From assembly GCF_003967015.1 (NCBI RefSeq), contig NZ_AP017560.1, forward strand, positions 1,612,001 to 1,676,000: a DNA stretch of 64,000 bases, in the 5' to 3' direction. Source of the DNA: Pseudanabaena sp. ABRG5-3. Lineage in GTDB: Bacteria > Cyanobacteriota > Cyanobacteriia > Pseudanabaenales > Pseudanabaenaceae. How positions within the stretch are numbered: position 1 is the first letter of the stretch; every line of letters begins with the position of its first letter. The notes under the pieces are model-generated. The model had not been told where the DNA came from. It searched no databases and saw only the letters and a program-made list of their open reading frames with translations. This document shows, piece after piece, positions 5,403 through 14,576 of the stretch. The translations under genes and the position numbers were made by a program.

Positions 5403-6272
5403 ATGCAACGGATTTTGGTAATTGAAGATGATGACGAAATTAGAGACGAAATCATCGATATTTTAGAGCTTAAAGGATTTGTGACTGAGGGGGCTAGTAA
5501 CGGTCGTATTGGTTTAGAGGCAGCGAAAAAAAAACATCCCGAATTAATTCTATGTGATGTTGATATGCCTGAATTGAATGGCTACGGTGTCTTAAAAAAT
5601 TTACAGCAAGATCCAGATCTAGAAGACATTCCCTTTATTTTCTTAACGGCTTTGTCTAGTATGGATAACCTAAGAAAAGGAATGAATCTTGGTGCAGATG
5701 ACTATCTCACAAAACCTCTGCAAATAGATCAGTTATTAACTGCGATCGCTACCCGTCTCCTAAAACAAGCAAAATCCAACAATCATAAAATTGGCAGCAT
5801 TCCCCATTCAAATACTACGCCGCAACAAGTTTCTGCAAGGCAGATTTCTGAAACGTCAAGGTTAACCCCTCGTCAGAGTCGAATTCTGCAATTAGTTAAC
5901 CAAGGCAAGCCAATAGTTGAAATTGCTGATGAACTTGCAGTGAGTATCGATGCTGCTGAGCTTCTAGCCGATATAGCGGTTCGATTGAATCATCGTCTTA
6001 ACTTAAATCAACATACAGAGATAGCGCCGCAATTACTAGTTCCCAAAATTGCTATTTCTATTCCTGATGATCTCTTAACACCACGTCAACGTGAAATTTT
6101 GAAGTTAGTGGCAAATGGAATGACAACTAAAGAAATTGCGGAGTTCCTATTTATTAGCGTTAAGACTGTGGAAACCCATCGCGGACAGTTAATGGATCGC
6201 CTCAATATTCATGACCTTGCGGGTTTAATTCGTTATGCGTTGCGAGTAGGCTTGATTAATCTAGATGCCTAA
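5403..6272 (+). CDS. Response regulator: REC plus two LuxR-type HTH segments
   Basis: NarL/FixJ-like transcription factor of 289 residues. The receiver domain (1-120) has the acidic triad in IEDDDE, the phospho-acceptor Asp in LCDVDMPE, the Thr in FLTAL and the Lys in LTKPL. The C-terminus (about 222-289) is a canonical LuxR HTH starting LTPRQREILKLVANG with VKTVETHR. Between them (about 155-200) lies a second, degenerate copy starting LTPRQSRILQLVNQG. No cognate kinase is adjacent. An NblA-like gene follows 113 bp downstream on the same strand, making it a plausible but unproven target. Confidence 0.9.
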   Translation: MQRILVIEDDDEIRDEIIDILELKGFVTEGASNGRIGLEAAKKKHPELILCDVDMPELNGYGVLKNLQQDPDLEDIPFIFLTALSSMDNLRKGMNLGADDYLTKPLQIDQLLTAIATRLLKQAKSNNHKIGSIPHSNTTPQQVSARQISETSRLTPRQSRILQLVNQGKPIVEIADELAVSIDAAELLADIAVRLNHRLNLNQHTEIAPQLLVPKIAISIPDDLLTPRQREILKLVANGMTTKEIAEFLFISVKTVETHRGQLMDRLNIHDLAGLIRYALRVGLINLDA

Positions 6273-6345
6273 GCTTGTACAACAAGAAGGTGGTTAAATG
6301 AATATAGTGGTTTTCCCTGATATTCAGAAGAAATAAATTTTGGTA

Positions 6346-6367
6346 GTTTATTAGTAGAGAAATAAAC
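6346..6367. promoter_or_regulatory. Interrupted palindrome GTTTATT-N8-AATAAAC upstream of nblA-like gene
   Basis: Perfect 7-bp inverted repeat separated by 8 nt, ending 18 bp before the ATG at 6386. Size and spacing fit a dimeric regulator operator or a 5' UTR hairpin. The binding factor is unknown; the upstream response regulator is one candidate. Confidence 0.35.
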
Positions 6368-6385
6368 TTAGAGAGGTAGAGAATC

Positions 6386-6562
6386 ATGAATATACGATTG
6401 CCTCCAGAAAAGCAGTTAGAGCATGATCTGTTTTGCCGAACAATCAAAGATATCGATATAGAGACAATGCAAATTGTCCTTAAAAAGCTACATATGATGT
6501 ATTTGCAAGAGCAAACCTTAGTAAATGAAATAGTCAGTAATGATCTATTGAGAAGTATTTAG
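6386..6562 (+). CDS. NblA-like small protein (phycobilisome degradation)
   Basis: A 58-codon ORF (MNIRLPPEKQ... ending LLRSI). Length, the leading L-x-x-E-x-x-L-E pattern, a central basic and amphipathic helix (TMQIVLKKLHMMYL) and the E-x-x-L-V-N-E end agree with the NblA family, small helical adaptors of 55-65 residues that bring phycobilisomes to Clp proteases during nutrient starvation. GAGAGG lies 10-15 nt before the ATG as a Shine-Dalgarno. It follows a LuxR-type response regulator; NblA genes elsewhere are response-regulator controlled (NblR). Assignment rests on pattern recognition alone. Confidence 0.6.
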   Translation: MNIRLPPEKQLEHDLFCRTIKDIDIETMQIVLKKLHMMYLQEQTLVNEIVSNDLLRSI

Positions 6563-6626
6563 AGTGTTGAATTAACTCAATTTATCTAATCAAATGAATG
6601 TATGAGGTTAACACAACTAACTAGTG

Positions 6627-6720
6627 TTGGGGGCATCCCCAATACCTCTCTTGTTTATAAGGGGCTGAGAGTATAGTGTTATTCTCGAGCGTGGGGGGAT
6701 GTCCTCCCGCCCTTTTTTTT
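6627..6720 (+). terminator. Structured 3' region ending in a strong intrinsic terminator
   Basis: Stem TTGGGG/CCCCAA at 6627-6642, a possible CTCTC/GAGAG pairing, then a stem of about 6 bp (GGGGGG with CCTCCC, 6692-6709) followed by CCTTTTTTTT at 6711-6720. The last unit is a textbook Rho-independent terminator on the plus strand. The segment is either the 3' UTR of the nblA-like gene or a separate small RNA. Confidence 0.6.
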
Positions 6721-6722
6721 GT

Positions 6723-6777
6723 AAAGCCCAAAACATGAATAGCAGCGCAAAGCGCTGCTATTCATGTTTTGGGCTTT
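6723..6777. repeat. Perfect 26-bp palindrome, AAA triloop
   Basis: Arms 6723-6748 and 6752-6777 are fully complementary around AAA, closed GC-AAA-GC. It directly follows the T tract of the terminator. Member of the window-wide palindrome family. Confidence 0.9.
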
Positions 6778-6838
6778 GATCTATCTTGGCTAAAGCCTTA
6801 CTATAACAGTGAAAGTTTTGCTTAGGACATAAAAACCA

Positions 6839-6877
6839 AATAAACAAAGACGGCGCTTCGCACCGTCTTTGTTTATT
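6839..6877. repeat. 18-bp palindrome with TTC loop, one mismatch
   Basis: Arms around a TTC loop at 6857-6859 (GC-TTC-GC). The flanking GCTTAGGACATAAAAACC resembles the flanks of the palindromes at 32783 and 32956 (GGACGTAAAACC), suggesting a larger shared element. Confidence 0.75.
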
Positions 6878-7102
6878 CTAGCTATCTATATAAGGTTGAA
6901 AGTAAATATCAGGGTATTCCCTGATATACATTAAATGGGAATGGCGATAGATTAGATACATAGAAAACGGGAGGGAAAAGATACTAAAGAGGGGGAAGAG
7001 AAAATCTAACACTCTGTATCAATTCTCAAAATTATCCAGTCAAGATTAGATTTACGGGTAGGAAAAGCTATCCATTCGAGACAAAAAAGAGAGGACAAAT
7101 AT

Positions 7103-7675
7103 ATGCTATCTATTACACTTCGCCGCGTTTTGGTTGCTTCTGGTCTTGCTGTTACTACATCTTTCATGACAGCTTTGTCAGCTTCTGCTGCTCCTACAAC
7201 AGCTAACGCTACTGCTGGCTTTACTGGAACTATCGATCCATCATGTGCTGTACAGACTGACTTCACCAATAATGCGGCAAATAAATTGGCTTACACAGCA
7301 GATGCTTACACAGGTTCGGGTTCTGGAGGTGTTTTAAAGCTTTCGGCAAACCAAAGCGCTGTATTTAACTGCAACAGTGTGTCAGTAGGCGTATCAACAG
7401 ATGTAACCTTGACTCAGCCCACAGCCGCAGCCACGCCTGGAGCTTTGCTTGTAGGTATTCATAAAACTACAATCACAGGCGCTAACAACGTTGCAAATAC
7501 AGCAAATGCTACTGGTTCAGGTACTGCTTTAGTTACTGGTACTGCTTGGGATACAGATAATCAAGGTAACATTAGCATTAATGTTGCGTCTGAATGGAAT
7601 CCACAAAGTGGTGGACAAGAGTTGTTGAATGGTATTTATACTGCTGTTGCCACTGTAACTGTGACACCTAACTAA
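7103..7675 (+). CDS. Secreted pilin-like subunit of chaperone-usher operon
   Basis: A 190-residue exported protein: Sec signal peptide with a basic start (TLRRVLVASG) and cleavage around ALSASAA (residue 30). The mature part is Ala/Thr/Asn/Gly rich, predicted all-beta, with exactly two cysteines (C48 and C90) suited to the disulfide of pilin subunits, and ends in an alternating hydrophobic strand (YTAVATVTVTPN). Family known: spore coat U/fimbrial-type subunits of archaic chaperone-usher systems look like this. The role as major pilin is inferred from first position and from the hairpin separating it from the other genes. Shine-Dalgarno AGAGAGGA precedes the ATG. Confidence 0.65.
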   Translation: MLSITLRRVLVASGLAVTTSFMTALSASAAPTTANATAGFTGTIDPSCAVQTDFTNNAANKLAYTADAYTGSGSGGVLKLSANQSAVFNCNSVSVGVSTDVTLTQPTAAATPGALLVGIHKTTITGANNVANTANATGSGTALVTGTAWDTDNQGNISINVASEWNPQSGGQELLNGIYTAVATVTVTPN

Positions 7676-7798
7676 TCAAGACAAATAACAAAGTCTAATT
7701 ACACTTTGTTAAATACCAAACAAATTCTAGGCTGAACTTCAATCACTCGTATAAAAAATAGTTAGCGAGTTTTGCCTTTAGCTAAAAGTAACAATTAA

Positions 7799-7832
7799 TA
7801 ACCGATAACCTGTACAAACAGGTTATCGGTTA
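7799..7832. terminator. 15-bp hairpin between first pilin gene and rest of operon
   Basis: Perfect stem 7799-7813 with 7818-7832 around ACAA, extended by AACAATT/AATTGTT flanks. No clean T tract follows. It could attenuate transcription into the downstream genes or stabilise the pilin mRNA. Confidence 0.6.
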
Positions 7833-7959
7833 CAATTGTTAAATGCTAAAGCTGTTTCTAGGGTATTAATAATATTTAAATTTCTTCTAGTCATCGCTCA
7901 ATATTTTCTCTAATAACATAGAAATTAAATTCGTTTCAGATTGCTATAGAAAAAGACAG

Positions 7960-8406
7960 ATGAGAAAACTAATTTTTGTAGCTTTTGTAATAATACCTAG
8001 TTTTAGTCCTTCTGAAGTATTTGCACAACTATCTTTAACCTGTCCTTCCACAGGAAGCCTAGCATTAAGTGGTCAATATACTTTTGTTACAGCAACCCCT
8101 GCACAATGTAGTCTAGTAGTTGATAATACTGTTAGCAGTATTGGGGTTACAATTAGCTTATCCAATGCCGTTTTAAATTCAATTAGTGGCTCAGCTAAGA
8201 TAGATCCCTCTGGTACTACAACAACAGCACAATTAACCTATAGCAATGGTGGGAACAAGAGTGTAAACCAGAATGCCAGTATAACCGATACCTTCTCAGG
8301 ATCTACTACTACTCCTATGGCAATAAGTATGCAATCAACAAGACCCAATAAATTCTTTGCAGGCACTTACACTTACGGAGTCACCATAAATATAACTGCA
8401 CCTTAA
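7960..8406 (+). CDS. Second small secreted subunit, pilin/tip-like
   Basis: A 148-residue protein with a signal peptide (MRKLIFVAFVIIPSF, cleavage near VFAQ), two cysteines (C28 and C50), Ser/Thr-rich beta-strand sequence and a C-terminal strand (TYTYGVTINITAP) parallel to the end of the first subunit. No confident family by eye; position 22 bp before the chaperone gene makes it a minor or tip subunit of the same system. Confidence 0.6.
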   Translation: MRKLIFVAFVIIPSFSPSEVFAQLSLTCPSTGSLALSGQYTFVTATPAQCSLVVDNTVSSIGVTISLSNAVLNSISGSAKIDPSGTTTTAQLTYSNGGNKSVNQNASITDTFSGSTTTPMAISMQSTRPNKFFAGTYTYGVTINITAP

Positions 8407-8428
8407 AACTATTAAGACGTAATAACTA

Positions 8429-9241
8429 ATGTTGACATTACCATACATCAAGCAAAGTATTTCTGTTATTACAAGTATTGGAATTTGTGGATTGTTACTA
8501 TCCCAAAAACCAGCCGCCGCTCAAGTTAATGTATCGCCTCTAGTCATCATTACTCAAGCCAAGCAGGGAACTGCTACAGGTTTTATTACCCTAGTTAATA
8601 CTGGTAATGCTGTCGTAAAAATGAAGTTATATGCCAATCCCTTTACCTACAGTTCTAAGGGTTTCCAAGTTGTAGAATCTAGTCCAAATGATTTATCGCC
8701 CTATCTCATTTTTTCTCCAACCGAAGTAGTTTTAGAACCCAAACAAACCCGTAGGGTTAGATTATTAGCCCGACTCTTGCCTAGCATGAAATTAGGGGAA
8801 TATCGATCTGTCATTTTTGCCGAACCTGTCAAGCCGCCAGATAATCTTAATAAGAAAGGAGGCTTGAGCATCAATACTCGCGTTGGAGTAGTGGTATATG
8901 TTCGGCAAGGTGAAACTCGTGAAAGCTTAATCGCCAAAGAAATTAGCTATGATCCTGAAACTAAACAACTCTACTTGTCAGTTCATAATGAAGGGAACGT
9001 TACTATCCGTACTCAAGGTAAATGGGAACTAAAGCAAGAGGGCAAACAAAGTTTAGAAGGGCAAATTTCTACTACTACTATTATTGCTGAAGGAATGAGA
9101 AACATCCCGCTCACCCTTTCCAAAGATCAGAAAAAAGAGACTATACCTTCTGGCAAATATCAACTTACAGGAGAATTGTCTTGGGGAGATCCGCTTAATC
9201 CTACACAAGTACCCTTCAATTTCCCAGTTACTATTCCATAG
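8429..9241 (+). CDS. PapD-like periplasmic chaperone
   Basis: A 270-residue exported protein (signal to about residue 32, PAAAQ). Mature sequence is two immunoglobulin-like halves. The first carries the chaperone pattern: VSPLVIIT near the start, FSPTEVVLEPKQTRRVRL (proline-rich turn then the basic strand), and RVGVVVYVRQG closing the domain. Such chaperones cap pilin subunits by donor-strand complementation and pass them to an outer-membrane usher. Its genes on either side (small secreted subunits, large barrel protein) fit that role. Confidence 0.75.
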   Translation: MLTLPYIKQSISVITSIGICGLLLSQKPAAAQVNVSPLVIITQAKQGTATGFITLVNTGNAVVKMKLYANPFTYSSKGFQVVESSPNDLSPYLIFSPTEVVLEPKQTRRVRLLARLLPSMKLGEYRSVIFAEPVKPPDNLNKKGGLSINTRVGVVVYVRQGETRESLIAKEISYDPETKQLYLSVHNEGNVTIRTQGKWELKQEGKQSLEGQISTTTIIAEGMRNIPLTLSKDQKKETIPSGKYQLTGELSWGDPLNPTQVPFNFPVTIP

Positions 9242-9269
9242 CGGCTGAGTTTATCAACAATCCATAAAC

Positions 9270-12074
9270 ATGAAGCTTGTATCCGAGACTCATACAAGGC
9301 TAGTTATTTTATGCCTAAATATATCGAGAATTTGCACAATTAGTGTATTTCTTAGCATTTTCTGTATGGATGTGCTAGTTAATGCCCAAGAGTTAAAGAA
9401 AGAGAACTCTAGTAATCAGCCTACAACTCTAAAAATTACGCTTCCAACAAATCAGCGAAATCTCACTTCTAAAACTCCTCCCGTTACTCCAACTAGTCCT
9501 ACACTTAGTCCTAAGTTGTCCCCAAAATTTTCCATTCTACCGATGGGGATTAATCTTGGGATAAATAATGTCATTCCCTCCGTAACAGTTAAAGGCTCAG
9601 AAAATGGTCAAGAAGCTATTGATTTTAACAACTGGCTAATTCCATTCGCAGATGTCACTAAAGCATTACAATTCAATGTGACTCCCAAAGATGACGGGCA
9701 ACTGGAATTACGATCCGTAGGTTCAATTATTACCATTGATCCCCAAGTCCTGATAAATGACCCAGATATTGGTCAAGCTATTTCTATCGAGCAAATTAGA
9801 AGTCTTTTAAAAACCCCCGTTGAATTTAATCTTGCAGAATATGCGATCGTTTTGTCTCCATCTTGGTTAACTGCCAGAATTAGTAATAGACCCTATCAGG
9901 AACAAGAAGCGCCAGTTAATTTAGAAGGATTACAACGAGTTACACCTCCTTTTTTAAGTCTTACAGGAATTTCTTTACGAACGAATTTAAATCAAACTCA
10001 AACTGTAAATTCTAATAATTTCAATAATAGTTCTAATAGCAATTTTAATGCTAATTCAGAATTTAAAACTATAGGTAGTATTGCTGGCGGAAGCTTATTC
10101 TCAAGGTCTCAGCAATTTAATAATAATGGAATTAATAGTTGGCAACTAAATGAACTGCAATATTTTCATCCTAGCCCTTATATAGACTATTTAATAGGTA
10201 CTCAGTCACCATTTTGGGGTAGATTTAATCGCAATCAAAGTGATTATTTTGGTGTGACATTAATTCAGAGGTTAGGTTATACAGCAGCTAATAATGCTAA
10301 TTTTTCCTATGGTGGTGTTACTCCTCAACAAAGACTTAGCGCCAACGAATTAGTCCGCAGCATTACAGGTGAAGCCCCCTTCGGAACTTTAGTTCAATTA
10401 GTTACCCAAAATGGCAACTTAATAGTTGCAGAAAAACTTGTAGATAGTTCTGGAAAATACAATTTTGATAATGTAGTGACTGCTAATAACTCTTTAACGG
10501 GTAATGGAAATATTAATTATAAGCTGCTACTTTATCCATCAGGAAACTTAAGTGCTACACCAGAAGAAGTTTCTTTAAATTACCGCAATTTGCAAAGTCA
10601 AGTTAGTGAAGGAAAATCAGCTTTTATTATTAGTGCAGGTGTAAGCCGTATTTCAGGAAATGATAATTTCTTCGGTAATCTTGGTGACTTTAAAGGTGGA
10701 GTAGCTTATTATTTGGGGCTGACAGATGAAATTACCTTTGGTGCTGGGTTAGTCTATGATTCCTATACTCAACCATATGGCGAAATACTTTACCAACCAG
10801 TGAATTCTCCTCTAACTTTGAGGGTTGGTGCATTAGCTGGTAACACAATCAATTTTAATGCTGATATTAGCTATATAACCGATAATTTTAGTTTGATACT
10901 AGGGGGTGACGAAAAGTCTTTTGTCTCCAACATATACTGGACATTAAGTCCACAATTTGCTCTGTTTTCTAATTGGTACTCTGGTGGAATAAATAATCGC
11001 TTAGAATCAGGATTTAACCTCAATCTAAATCCTATATTTTTAAGTTTGAGTTATGATGCTGATAAGGGGATTAACGGTGTTTTGCGTGGAAATTTAGCTC
11101 CATTTTTATTCGGTATACGCAAATATAATCAACAGATTTCTTCTGAGTTAATATATAATTTATCTAACAGACGTTCTTTTAATTCTAGTGATACTGCCAT
11201 TAGTATTAACTATGAGACTAGTGATAACAAATATTTAGGAAGTCTTAATTTAGTTTATAGGACTCCTTGGACGGATAGAGATGGCAAGAGTTTATTAGAC
11301 TTATCAATAGGTTATGGGATTGGTTCTCAAGGAAATGGATTGATTGCATCTGCATCTACATCTATTCTTCCAGGGATAGGATTAAGACTAGCCTATAGTC
11401 AAGTTGGCTTAAATAATAATAATTCTGCAATTAGTCTTAGTCTCTTCACTAGTGTGTTATTGCAATCTGGCGTAGATTTGAGTAGTGACGAATCAAAATT
11501 AGATAAGTTACGTACTCAGGGTGGTATCTTCTTACAGCCATTTTTTGATAAAAATAACAATGGTATTCGAGATGATGGTGAAGATCTTTATACTGAAGAG
11601 ATAGAATCACTATTCCTAATTAATAATCAAACCCTCAGTAGGTTTGGCATATCTCGTCCCAAAATAGTTGGTGAAGGAGTTTTATTTGAGCTACCACCAA
11701 ATACTTATCGATTAGACATAGATCCAGCAGGTTTCCCTCTTGGTTGGAAATCATTGCAGATAGGTTATGCAGTAACAGTTTCTGCGGGTACTTATACAAC
11801 TCTTTCAATTCCTCTTGTTCCATCCTATGTAGTTACGGGAAGAGCGATCGCTAAAGATGGAAAACCGATGATAGGTGTCAATGTAGAATTTGTGTCGCGA
11901 AGCAATCCGAAGAAGCGATTTACATCAATTACCAACAATGCTGGAATCTACTATCTTGAAGACTTGAAAGTAGATATTTATAAGTTATTCATTAATGGTA
12001 ACTCTGCCCAGCCCAGTACTTTGGAAATAAATTCAGGTTCTGAGAGTTTCCTAGAACTTAATATACAGCCATAG
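9270..12074 (+). CDS. Divergent fimbrial usher-like outer-membrane protein
   Basis: A 934-residue exported protein with an N-terminal hydrophobic segment, a soluble N-terminal domain (about 95-200), a long Asn/Ser/aromatic-rich beta-strand region typical of an outer-membrane barrel, and an embedded Ig-like insert about 365-430 (GEAPFGTLVQLVTQNG then DSSGKYNF) that matches the plug or middle domain of ushers. The C-terminus has a calcium-type loop (FFDKNNNGIRDDGED) and two beta-sandwich domains, the last a carboxypeptidase-regulatory-like fold (VVTGRAIAKDGKPMIGV). Known ushers export and assemble pili; usher identity is inferred from the plug domain and gene order, as overall similarity to PapC is low. 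Confidence 0.65.
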   Translation: MKLVSETHTRLVILCLNISRICTISVFLSIFCMDVLVNAQELKKENSSNQPTTLKITLPTNQRNLTSKTPPVTPTSPTLSPKLSPKFSILPMGINLGINNVIPSVTVKGSENGQEAIDFNNWLIPFADVTKALQFNVTPKDDGQLELRSVGSIITIDPQVLINDPDIGQAISIEQIRSLLKTPVEFNLAEYAIVLSPSWLTARISNRPYQEQEAPVNLEGLQRVTPPFLSLTGISLRTNLNQTQTVNSNNFNNSSNSNFNANSEFKTIGSIAGGSLFSRSQQFNNNGINSWQLNELQYFHPSPYIDYLIGTQSPFWGRFNRNQSDYFGVTLIQRLGYTAANNANFSYGGVTPQQRLSANELVRSITGEAPFGTLVQLVTQNGNLIVAEKLVDSSGKYNFDNVVTANNSLTGNGNINYKLLLYPSGNLSATPEEVSLNYRNLQSQVSEGKSAFIISAGVSRISGNDNFFGNLGDFKGGVAYYLGLTDEITFGAGLVYDSYTQPYGEILYQPVNSPLTLRVGALAGNTINFNADISYITDNFSLILGGDEKSFVSNIYWTLSPQFALFSNWYSGGINNRLESGFNLNLNPIFLSLSYDADKGINGVLRGNLAPFLFGIRKYNQQISSELIYNLSNRRSFNSSDTAISINYETSDNKYLGSLNLVYRTPWTDRDGKSLLDLSIGYGIGSQGNGLIASASTSILPGIGLRLAYSQVGLNNNNSAISLSLFTSVLLQSGVDLSSDESKLDKLRTQGGIFLQPFFDKNNNGIRDDGEDLYTEEIESLFLINNQTLSRFGISRPKIVGEGVLFELPPNTYRLDIDPAGFPLGWKSLQIGYAVTVSAGTYTTLSIPLVPSYVVTGRAIAKDGKPMIGVNVEFVSRSNPKKRFTSITNNAGIYYLEDLKVDIYKLFINGNSAQPSTLEINSGSESFLELNIQP

Positions 12075-12132
12075 GATTTCTGCTCATTAAGCAAGCATAT
12101 TAAGTAGTTGGGTGCAATTAAATATAAAACCC

Positions 12133-12161
12133 AAAAACCTGTGGTGATCGCCATAGGTTTT
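12133..12161 (+). terminator. Hairpin after usher gene
   Basis: AAAACCTGTGG paired with CCATAGGTTTT around TGATCG (11 bp with one wobble), U-rich on the 3' side. Likely terminator of the chaperone-usher operon. Positions 12165-12308 show nothing further apart from the AT-rich leader of the next gene. Confidence 0.6.
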
Positions 12162-12308
12162 GCTCTAGGTTTTAATTATTCCTAGCTACTTAATTAAATT
12201 AAGTTTTTTCTTTTGATACCAAGCATTGCCATAAGCGTTGTCAGTGCATAATTAAATTTGAGGTCATGACTGGAAACCACGATCTCAAAAATTACGTCCT
12301 AGCAATTT

Positions 12309-14576
12309 ATGAAATCGCCACAGCCGCCATCACATCCCCCGTCTAAAGCACCGAAACCACCTAAGTCAAAGTTGATGACCCAGATCAATCAACTGACAAA
12401 GGTAGTTAATGGGGTATTAAAAATTAATCCCAAAGAGCGTGTCCCCAAGCTAGAAGTGCGCCGATCGCAAAAGGATAAGCCTGAAATTTATGACTTAGTG
12501 GGCGATCGCTACATATTAGGACGTAGTACTAGTAAGTGCGATATTGTCGTACAAACGCCACTGGTGAGCCAAGTTCATGCCCAGTTGGTTCGCGATCGCA
12601 CCCAAAAGAAAGCACAATTTATTCTCCAAGATCAAGACTCGACTAATGGCATTTATCGCGATAAGCAAAGGCTCAAGTCTGTGCCACTACGTCACAAAAT
12701 GAAAATTACGCTGGGTCCGCCAGAACTAGCCGAAGCTGCCACAATTCGTTATCTCGATCCGCCACCTTGGTATATTCGCACGGTGCAATATACGGGTATT
12801 GGTATTGGCGCGATCGCAGGAATGATCGTATTAGCGATCGGTTATGAAGTGGGGCGTGTTCCCGATCTAAAACCATTACCCGTTACCCAACAAGGTCCCG
12901 TAGAAGTATTAGCAGGCGATGGCATTAAACGCCTTGATCCTACGGACATTGCTAACCATACGGAATACAATACTTTGGCGGAGTTTGGGAAGTTTATTCC
13001 CAATGCGGTAATCGCTTCTGAAGATAGTTCTTTTTATTGGAATATTGGCGTTGATCCTGTAGGTGTGGCAAGGGCTTTAGTCACTAATGTGCGTAGTCGG
13101 GGTGAGCGCTTAGAAGGCGCAAGTACGGTTACGCAGCAGTTAGCCCGCAACCTACTCGGCAAAACCTATGTGGGAACTGATGACTCCGCAGGACGGAAAT
13201 GGCGGGAGGCGGCGGCGGCGATCAAGCTTACCTTTACCTATAACAAAGAGGAAATCCTCCGTCTTTATCTCAACCGTGCCTATACAGGTAATGGAGTCTA
13301 TGGATTCAAGGATGCGGCTAAGCTCTATTTCGGGAAAGAAGCCTCAGAACTCAATCTTTCAGAAGCAGCTACTCTAGTCGGTTTGCTACCTTCTCCTGAA
13401 ACGATTAATCCATTTAAGAATAAAGATCTTGCCATCGAATATCGCGATCGCATTCTCAATCGCATGGCAGAGTTGGGAATGATCACTGATAAGGATGCGG
13501 ATCGGGCAAGGCGATCGGTATTAATCCTCAATGAAGCTGCGAAAACTAAGCTCCAAGGCTCCGTTGCACCCTACTACTACAGTTATGTTTTTGATGAATT
13601 AGAGGAAATTCTCGGCAAAAACTTTGCGCGAGAGGGCAATCTCATCGTTGAGACTAATCTTGATATCACCATGCAGAAAGCCTCCGATGCCGCTTTGCGC
13701 GATGCAGTAGATCGCGATGGCGCAAATTATGGATTTAGCCAAGGGGCGATCGTCACGGTCAATACAAGTGATGGCTCATTGCTAGCGATGACAGGTGGTG
13801 TCGATTACAAAACTAGTCAGTTTAACCGCGCCGCCCAATCTCTGCGGCAACCAGGTTCTACTTTTAAATTATTTAGCTACGCTGCGGCTGTCGATCAAGG
13901 AGTTTCCCCTAGTACTGCTTTTTCCTGTAGCCCCCACTCAGGAATTATTGGTTGTCACAATGGTGGTAGTGGGGCGATCGATATGTATCGTGGCTTTGCT
14001 CTATCTGAAAATGTGGTAGCAGTGCGTGTAGCTGAAAGAGCAGGGCTAGAGAATGTCGTTAAAATGGCAAGAACTTTGGGGATCACTGCTAAGTTAGATG
14101 CGTCTAGCAACATGGTTTTAGGTGGTAATGAAGTCAAAATCCTTGAAATGGCTGGAGCCTATGCCACGGTGGTCAATGAAGGTAAATACATTAAGCCCCA
14201 TGCCATTAAACGCATTCTCGATAGTGCTGATTGTAAAAATCCTAAGGATCGCCAAACCTGTCGCGTCATTTTTGATGCTAGTACCTTCATTAAGCCGCGT
14301 CAGGTAATTGATGCGGGTGTGGCTAGCACAATGGTGGATATGATGCGTGGTGTCGTCCAGTATGGTACAGGGCGATCAGCAGCCATTCCCCAAGGTACAG
14401 TCGTGGGTAAAACGGGAACCACTGACGAAGGGCGCGATCTCTGGTTTATTGGTGCGGTTCCTCGGCTTAATTTAGTCACTGCGGTCTGGTTAGGCAATGA
14501 TGAGGGTGTAACGAGAGGCTCAAGTGCAGTCGCCGCAGAGGTTTGGGGTAATTATATGCGTCAGGCTGTTCGCTAA
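12309..14576 (+). CDS. FHA-domain class A penicillin-binding protein (PBP1-type)
   Basis: Bifunctional peptidoglycan synthase of 755 residues. An N-terminal cytoplasmic FHA domain (about 65-130, YILGRSTSKCDIVV, SQVHAQL, DSTNGIY) precedes a membrane helix (about 155-180). The glycosyltransferase GT51 domain follows (SEDSSFYWNIGVDP, GASTVTQQLARNL), then a transpeptidase with the serine of STFK at 517, SEN (in LSENVVAVRV) and KTGTTDEG. All catalytic motifs are intact. FHA domains bind phosphothreonine, so Ser/Thr kinase control of wall synthesis is a reasonable inference. Monocistronic, with a terminator hairpin after the stop. Confidence 0.95.
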   Translation: MKSPQPPSHPPSKAPKPPKSKLMTQINQLTKVVNGVLKINPKERVPKLEVRRSQKDKPEIYDLVGDRYILGRSTSKCDIVVQTPLVSQVHAQLVRDRTQKKAQFILQDQDSTNGIYRDKQRLKSVPLRHKMKITLGPPELAEAATIRYLDPPPWYIRTVQYTGIGIGAIAGMIVLAIGYEVGRVPDLKPLPVTQQGPVEVLAGDGIKRLDPTDIANHTEYNTLAEFGKFIPNAVIASEDSSFYWNIGVDPVGVARALVTNVRSRGERLEGASTVTQQLARNLLGKTYVGTDDSAGRKWREAAAAIKLTFTYNKEEILRLYLNRAYTGNGVYGFKDAAKLYFGKEASELNLSEAATLVGLLPSPETINPFKNKDLAIEYRDRILNRMAELGMITDKDADRARRSVLILNEAAKTKLQGSVAPYYYSYVFDELEEILGKNFAREGNLIVETNLDITMQKASDAALRDAVDRDGANYGFSQGAIVTVNTSDGSLLAMTGGVDYKTSQFNRAAQSLRQPGSTFKLFSYAAAVDQGVSPSTAFSCSPHSGIIGCHNGGSGAIDMYRGFALSENVVAVRVAERAGLENVVKMARTLGITAKLDASSNMVLGGNEVKILEMAGAYATVVNEGKYIKPHAIKRILDSADCKNPKDRQTCRVIFDASTFIKPRQVIDAGVASTMVDMMRGVVQYGTGRSAAIPQGTVVGKTGTTDEGRDLWFIGAVPRLNLVTAVWLGNDEGVTRGSSAVAAEVWGNYMRQAVR

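What the first reader, a model, noticed from the sequence alone, without database searches (positions are those of the whole stretch)
7103..12074. Divergent chaperone-usher pilus operon in a cyanobacterium
Two small two-cysteine secreted subunits, a PapD-like chaperone and a 934-residue barrel with an usher plug-like insert are in the right order. Chaperone-usher systems are best known in Proteobacteria; archaic (sigma-type) ones have been reported outside them, but this usher is unusual, with a calcium-loop (DKNNNGIRDDGED) and carboxypeptidase-regulatory-like domain at its C-terminus. It may assemble a so far undescribed surface fibre.
Basis: partly seen in the sequence, partly recalled or inferred. 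Interest (0 to 1): 0.75.

Follow-up and report, generated by a model that had tools for sequence, protein, structure and literature searches.

The report
Overlooked chaperone-usher fibre operon in cyanobacteria
A cyanobacterium carries four genes in a row for building a thread-like surface fibre in the same general way as bacterial adhesion pili, and close versions missed by standard family models occur in roughly one in ten cyanobacterial species sampled, so a widespread but unrecognised surface appendage may be waiting to be looked at.

Summary
Window 7103-12074 encodes two small secreted two-cysteine subunits, a two-domain PapD-like chaperone and a 934-residue usher.

The usher model (AlphaFold2, mean pLDDT 80) matches only FimD/PapC at the top. 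It has a plug after barrel strand six and two C-terminal domains. The chaperone model matches CU chaperones, but WxLIP ranks above them. The chaperone keeps the two residues said to mark non-classical chaperones, in 48 of 48 relatives. Profile comparison links usher and chaperone full length to recognised cyanobacterial CU proteins; subunits link more weakly.

The operon is not Pseudanabaena-specific. Ushers of this clade occur in 59 cyanobacterial loci, and in 28 of 291 sampled genomes of the class. Usher and chaperone co-evolve. Window proteins give no Pfam PapD or Usher match.

One correction: the carboxypeptidase-like C-terminus is the ordinary usher CTD2. The calcium-type loop is clade-specific (50 of 53 relatives, 0 of 19 other ushers checked).

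Best reading: a divergent, archaic-like chaperone-usher lineage. The first subunit has a donor-strand extension and is probably the shaft pilin. The second lacks one and is probably the tip. Fibre formation itself is untested.

The parts
7103..7675 (+). Subunit 1 (190 aa): signal peptide of about 29 aa, then an N-terminal extension APTTANATAGFTGTIDPS before Cys48; second Cys90; C-terminal GIYTAVATVTVTPN. Likely shaft (major) pilin with donor strand.
   Evidence: orthologues 56-79% identical in the other three Pseudanabaena genomes that carry the system; tandem identical duplicate in G017/L068
7676..7959 (.). Intergenic gap with an inverted repeat (stem 16 bp, 7798-7833) that has no other copy in the genome; candidate attenuator between subunit 1 and the rest (inference)
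7960..8406 (+). Subunit 2 (148 aa): signal peptide, mature N-terminus about QLSLTC, so no N-terminal extension; Cys28/Cys50. Likely tip or initiator subunit.
   Evidence: profile link to other operon subunits; extension-less subunit directly upstream of chaperone in several lineages
8429..9241 (+). PapD-like two-domain periplasmic chaperone (270 aa); Pro97, Arg126, Arg224 and Tyr244 invariant in 48 relatives; donor-strand-like stretch residues 146-152
9270..12074 (+). Outer-membrane usher (934 aa)
9531..9869 (+). Usher N-terminal periplasmic domain (residues about 88-200), boundary approximate
   Evidence: secondary structure; colinear profile alignment
9954..10274 (+). First six barrel strands (residues about 229-335)
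10323..10577 (+). Plug domain inserted after strand 6 (residues about 352-436)
   Evidence: SdrD_B-like match inside it
10617..11459 (+). Remaining barrel strands (residues about 450-730)
11511..11789 (+). C-terminal domain 1 (residues about 748-840)
11547..11582 (+). Calcium-type loop DKNNNGIRDDGE (residues 760-771), clade-specific
   Evidence: 50 of 53 clade members, 0 of 17 recognised cyanobacterial ushers, FimD, EcpC
11793..12071 (+). C-terminal domain 2 (residues about 842-934), carboxypeptidase-regulatory-like, as in EcpC

Best explanation
The locus is a chaperone-usher (CU) pathway operon of the non-classical (archaic-like) kind, from a lineage that existing models miss. Inferred mechanism: both subunits are exported through Sec into the periplasm. 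The chaperone's first Ig domain holds each subunit by lending it a beta-strand (residues 146-152) and anchoring the subunit's C-terminal carboxylate with Arg126. Chaperone-subunit complexes dock on the usher's N-terminal and C-terminal domains, the plug moves aside, and subunits polymerise through the usher pore when the N-terminal extension of one subunit replaces the chaperone strand in the previous one. Subunit 2 has no extension, so it can only receive a strand: it is the likely tip. Subunit 1 has an extension and can form the shaft. Shown by computation: usher fold with plug, chaperone fold, homology of usher and chaperone to recognised CU proteins, conserved operon, conserved anchor arginine and proline. 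Inferred: donor-strand exchange, which subunit is tip or shaft, fibre formation, calcium binding and adhesive role.
For: Usher model: the first 17 Foldseek hits are all FimD/PapC (E down to 7e-26). In VIA-align the first 15 entries are all FimD/PapC, best Z 16.7 (rmsd 4.3, 325 aligned), with alignments up to 595 residues reaching the last residue; the best non-usher scores 13.0. The plug follows strand 6. Chaperone model: CU chaperones Z 11.5-14.5 over about 170-200 residues, including archaic CsuC and alternative CfaA and EcpB. Profile-profile: usher 96.5% (E 7e-10, colinear full length) and chaperone 97-99% (E to 1.7e-16) against recognised cyanobacterial CU proteins; reversed and shuffled controls stay near 1% or below. 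In a scan of 291 genomes the chaperone profile picks out chaperone genes next to PF00577 ushers, e.g. G203:C3, G133:C1, G124:C62, G166:C1. Pro97 and Arg126 are invariant in 48 of 48 and align without gaps to EcpB Pro60/Arg89, the residues PMC4654587 gives as conserved in archaic and alternative chaperones. Usher and chaperone co-vary (Pearson 0.92, 0 of 2000 permutations). Subunits: profile match to SCPU pilins 82%, E 1.1e-5; six of nine PDB hits of the A4 profile are the CU subunit Caf1, the best at E 0.018; the two-cysteine layout resembles archaic pilins (PMC10104325).
Against: No Pfam PapD or Usher match for the window proteins even at E 1. The best structural match of the chaperone is WxLIP of Enterococcus (Z 16.9), above PapD-type chaperones. 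The second-domain tyrosine anchor of CsuC/EcpB is not conserved at the aligned position. No subunit structure was predicted. No expression, microscopy or pull-down data exist for this lineage. DSSP gives about 26 barrel strands in the model rather than the 24 of FimD/PapC.
Confidence: 0.88

Rival explanations
1. The proteins use the chaperone-usher parts to secrete or display a non-fibrous coat or capsule-like layer (as proposed for spore coat U systems of Myxococcus and as with the Caf1 capsule) rather than a pilus.
For: Subunits resemble SCPU and Caf1 in profile comparisons, and CU pathways are known to make non-fimbrial coats (quoted in PMC7005997).
Against: Subunit 1 keeps an N-terminal extension suited to linear polymerisation and subunit 2 lacks it, as expected of a tip. 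Even Caf1 capsules are linear fibres at the molecular level, so the machinery is the same.
Confidence: 0.25
2. The chaperone-like protein is a WxLIP-type surface-linking protein, not a donor-strand chaperone, and the barrel is a porin-like exporter for it.
For: WxLIP ranks first in both structure comparisons of the chaperone model (Z 16.9 against 14.5).
Against: The chaperone profile matches chaperones sitting next to PF00577 ushers and aligns full length to them. The CU proline and arginine are invariant. The barrel has the usher plug and C-terminal domains. WxLIP is described from clusters of cell-wall-binding WxL proteins with no usher reported.
Confidence: 0.04
3. A decayed or non-functional operon kept by chance in the window genome.
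For: Patchy presence, 4 of about 25 genomes of the genus; one distant relative (G042) has an in-frame stop in its usher.
Against: All four frames are intact in the window and in L008 and L068, and key residues are conserved across the class.
Confidence: 0.05

Closest known systems
Archaic (sigma-type) chaperone-usher systems: Csu of Acinetobacter, CupE of Pseudomonas, and recognised cyanobacterial cccS/cccP/usher-type clusters (SCPU + PapD + PF00577)
   Same: Same four roles and gene set, anchor arginine in chaperone domain 1, two-cysteine pilins, usher with plug and two C-terminal domains; two-domain subunit (368-386 aa) in the Trichodesmium and Prochloron relatives like two-domain tip adhesins CsuE/CupE6.
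   Different: Window proteins not recognised by PF00577, PF00345 or PF05229; clade-specific calcium-type loop at the start of CTD1; extension-less single-domain subunit next to the chaperone; second-domain tyrosine anchor not seen at the aligned position.
Alternative chaperone-usher systems (EcpABCD of E. coli, CFA/I)
   Same: Chaperone profile and model close to EcpB and CfaA; carboxypeptidase-regulatory-like/CooC_C C-terminal domain also in EcpC.
   Different: No profile match of the usher to EcpC (single-sequence target, weak test); subunits do not match EcpA.
Classical type 1 and P pili (FimD/FimC, PapC/PapD)
   Same: Usher fold, plug position and C-terminal domains; tandem-Ig chaperone.
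   Different: No sequence-profile match to FimC or FimD (single-sequence targets); chaperone carries the non-classical arginine.
WxLIP (DUF916/DUF3324) of Gram-positive bacteria
   Same: Two-domain beta fold, best structural match of the chaperone.
   Different: No usher; functions with WxL cell-wall proteins (PMC10599100).

Membership tests
Chaperone-usher superfamily | Outer-membrane usher: large barrel, plug between strands 6 and 7, N-terminal domain, two C-terminal domains | tested here: met
Chaperone-usher superfamily | Periplasmic chaperone with two Ig-like domains and the superfamily-invariant proline | tested here: met
   Pro97 in 48/48, aligned to EcpB Pro60
Chaperone-usher superfamily | Secreted subunits with incomplete Ig fold and N-terminal donor extension | tested here: inconclusive
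   Sequence profile links to SCPU and Caf1 and extension present in subunit 1; no structure predicted
Chaperone-usher superfamily | Subunit, chaperone and usher genes clustered and co-inherited | tested here: met
Chaperone-usher superfamily | Polymerisation by donor-strand exchange into a fibre | not testable with these tools
   needs biochemistry and microscopy
Non-classical (archaic/alternative) class | Super-conserved arginine in domain 1 strand F (CsuC/EcpB Arg89) | tested here: met
   Arg126 in 48/48, gap-free alignment to EcpB Arg89; residue role from PMC4654587
Non-classical (archaic/alternative) class | Domain 2 tyrosine and arginine anchors (EcpB Tyr169/Arg148) | tested here: inconclusive
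   Aligned positions Thr217 (not a recurrent Tyr) and Arg194 (Arg in 17/48); alignment in domain 2 is weak; invariant Arg224 and Tyr244 could replace them
Archaic class proper (Csu/CupE/cyanobacterial SCPU type) | Groups with archaic ushers in a phylogeny | not tested
   too divergent for a reliable tree here; nearest profiles are recognised cyanobacterial ones
Pfam Usher PF00577, PapD_N PF00345, SCPU PF05229 | Score over the curated cut-off | tested here: not met

The most novel reading that the evidence does not exclude
A separate fourth lineage of chaperone-usher pathway, found only in cyanobacteria, whose usher is controlled by calcium at its first C-terminal domain and which builds a fibre with a single-domain, extension-less tip made next to the chaperone, possibly important in colony or mat formation (Trichodesmium, Nostoc).
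Probability: 0.2. Interest if true: 0.65.

Novelty: new variant of a known kind. Interest (0 to 1): 0.45.

Why it matters
Chaperone-usher systems in cyanobacteria are counted with Pfam usher and PapD models. In the sampled class those find an usher in 53 of 291 genomes. The lineage described here adds hits in 28 of 291 genomes, including many Nostoc relatives; relatives also occur in Trichodesmium and Prochloron. Most are genomes where the usual search found nothing. It gives named genes for knock-out and imaging in filamentous, mat-forming and colony-forming cyanobacteria, whose thin surface fibres are largely unassigned, and a specific residue set (anchor arginine, calcium-type loop) to test.

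Tried and rejected
Single-sequence Pfam and NCBIfam scans of the four proteins gave no CU family, and sequence searches of the PDB gave only marginal chaperone and subunit hits; the usher profile gave only chance-level PDB hits. The larger subunit profile A5 lost sharpness in the PDB (top hit an unrelated human protein at 0.0085, Caf1 next at 0.081), so the PDB subunit evidence is called marginal. The idea that the carboxypeptidase-like domain is a new add-on was rejected because recognised ushers show the same match. The idea that canonical and new systems exclude each other within the genus (4 against 10 genomes, no overlap) was not pursued: by hand calculation the chance of no overlap is about 0.11. 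Upstream palindromes at 6727-6878 as operon regulators were rejected because they belong to dispersed repeats (58 matches in the genome). No Rfam match in 6200-12400. No relatives on PLSDB plasmids.

Full report
Observation. The window is from a 5.66 Mb cyanobacterial genome (G000). Its nearest relatives in the system include Pseudanabaena biceps PCC 7429 and Pseudanabaena sp. 'Roaring Creek'. Four genomes of the genus carry the usher, the window's included. Single-sequence Pfam scans give no chaperone, usher or pilin family. They give only a carboxypeptidase-regulatory-like domain at usher residues 855-923 and an SdrD_B-like match at 372-409. The genome holds no PF00577 usher and no PF00345 chaperone anywhere.

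Relatives. A scan of 84,980 species genomes with two conserved peptide patterns found 59 loci encoding usher relatives, all named as cyanobacteria: Nostocales, Trichodesmium, Prochloron, Spirulina, Symploca, Coleofasciculus and others. In most of these loci the chaperone gene lies just upstream of the usher, and one to three small secreted proteins lie upstream of that. In 291 genomes sampled across the class, the usher profile hits 28 (19 of 130 genera), counting some partial or more distant matches, and the chaperone profile hits 33. Pfam's usher model hits 53 in the same sample, mostly different genomes. Usher and chaperone identities are correlated across 40 loci (Pearson 0.92, none of 2000 permutations as high), so the two travel together.

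Usher. An alignment of 53 relatives gave a confident model (mean pLDDT 80). The strand order is an N-terminal domain, six barrel strands, a small beta domain, then the rest of the barrel, then two beta domains. The plug after strand 6 is the FimD/PapC arrangement (established knowledge). The first 17 Foldseek hits in the PDB are all FimD or PapC. VIA-align puts FimD/PapC first, with best Z 16.7, and extends alignments of up to 595 residues to the last residue; unrelated porins follow at Z 13.0 and below. A profile comparison with eleven recognised cyanobacterial ushers is colinear over the full length (96.5%, E 7e-10), while reversed and shuffled controls stay near or below 1%. DSSP gives about 26 barrel strands in the model rather than 24; the exact number should not be taken from a prediction.

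C-terminus. The carboxypeptidase-regulatory-like match is not special to this protein. The same Pfam model hits the C-terminal domain of E. coli EcpC and of recognised cyanobacterial ushers, and ten of the 53 relatives weakly match CooC_C. It is therefore the ordinary second C-terminal domain. The loop DKNNNGIRDDGE is different. It is present in 50 of 53 members of this clade and absent from 17 recognised cyanobacterial ushers, FimD and EcpC. Calcium binding is an inference from its pattern.

Chaperone. The model (pLDDT 84) is a tandem-Ig protein. Its best structural matches are WxLIP of Enterococcus (Z 16.9) and then a long list of CU chaperones at Z 11.5-14.5, including archaic CsuC and alternative CfaA and EcpB. 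Profile comparison gives 98.7% and 97.1% against recognised cyanobacterial CU chaperones, 83% against EcpB and nothing against FimC. In a blind genome scan the profile finds chaperone genes right beside PF00577 ushers, for example G203:C3 (E 5.5e-17), G133:C1, G124:C62 and G166:C1. [quoted passage not shown] Both are invariant here (Pro97, Arg126, 48 of 48) and align without gaps to EcpB Pro60 and Arg89. The tyrosine anchor in domain 2 is not found at the aligned position; invariant Arg224 and Tyr244 might replace it. The stretch 146-152 aligned to the EcpB donor strand has alternating hydrophobic or small residues.

Subunits. The subunits across loci share a signal peptide, a start of the type V-D-V-P-F-x-G-x-V before the first cysteine, a second cysteine about 34-49 residues later and a GxYxYxVTxTxTP end. 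Their profile matches SCPU pilins (82%, E 1.1e-5; controls 0.09 or worse). In the PDB the profile's six best hits are all the CU subunit Caf1, but only at E 0.018 to 0.22, so this is marginal. PMC10104325 reports the same two-cysteine layout in archaic pilins. In the Pseudanabaena loci, Mastigocoleus, Richelia, Goleter and Calothrix PCC 7103, the subunit gene that touches the chaperone gene encodes a protein whose first cysteine lies within about nine residues of the apparent mature start, so it has no donor extension. In Prochloron and Trichodesmium that place is taken by a 368-386 residue protein that looks two-domain. Two loci, L035 and L049, break the rule. Two-domain tip adhesins without a donor strand are known from archaic pili (CsuE, CupE6). 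Hence subunit 2 (7960-8406) is the likely tip and subunit 1 (7103-7675) the likely shaft pilin. This is an inference; mature starts were estimated by eye and script, not by a signal-peptide program.

Place among known systems. Cyanobacterial CU systems of the SCPU/PapD/PF00577 type have been described (PMC4390875, PMC5853447, PMC7005997), and loss of the usher UshA in Synechocystis does not affect flocculation (PMC6755745). I found no paper on the lineage described here in the held library, which lacks most subscription journals. I file it as a chaperone-usher system of the non-classical kind, a new variant, without claiming membership of the Pfam families, whose cut-offs the window proteins fail.

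Limits. No subunit structure, no complex and no tree were made. Nothing shows expression or a fibre.

Noticed in passing
window 6727-6773 and 6838-6878: Two long near-perfect palindromes upstream of the operon belong to dispersed repeats: 58 matches to the stretch 6720-6885 in the genome.
   Followed up: partly
G120:C41, G138:C41, G146:C60, G262:C3:6155089-6159467: More distant chaperone and usher relatives lie a few kb apart in the same contigs (usher E 1e-16 to 1e-20, C-terminal part only), suggesting a further sister lineage.
   Followed up: no
L068:5956-6567 and L068:6935-7546: The shaft pilin gene is duplicated in tandem with identical predicted protein in another Pseudanabaena genome (G017).
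   Followed up: no
L005/L066 (G042:C1:984877-987501): In-frame TGA in an otherwise intact usher relative: pseudogene, assembly error or recoding not resolved.
   Followed up: no
L011, L036, L038, L048, L054: A chaperone gene of this family on the strand opposite to the usher, facing away upstream, points to divergent arrangements or second operons.
   Followed up: no
m173adfe78656 (window 8429-9241): The cyanobacterial chaperone is structurally closer to Gram-positive WxLIP (Z 16.9) than to PapD-type chaperones, hinting at a possible common origin of the two.
   Followed up: partly
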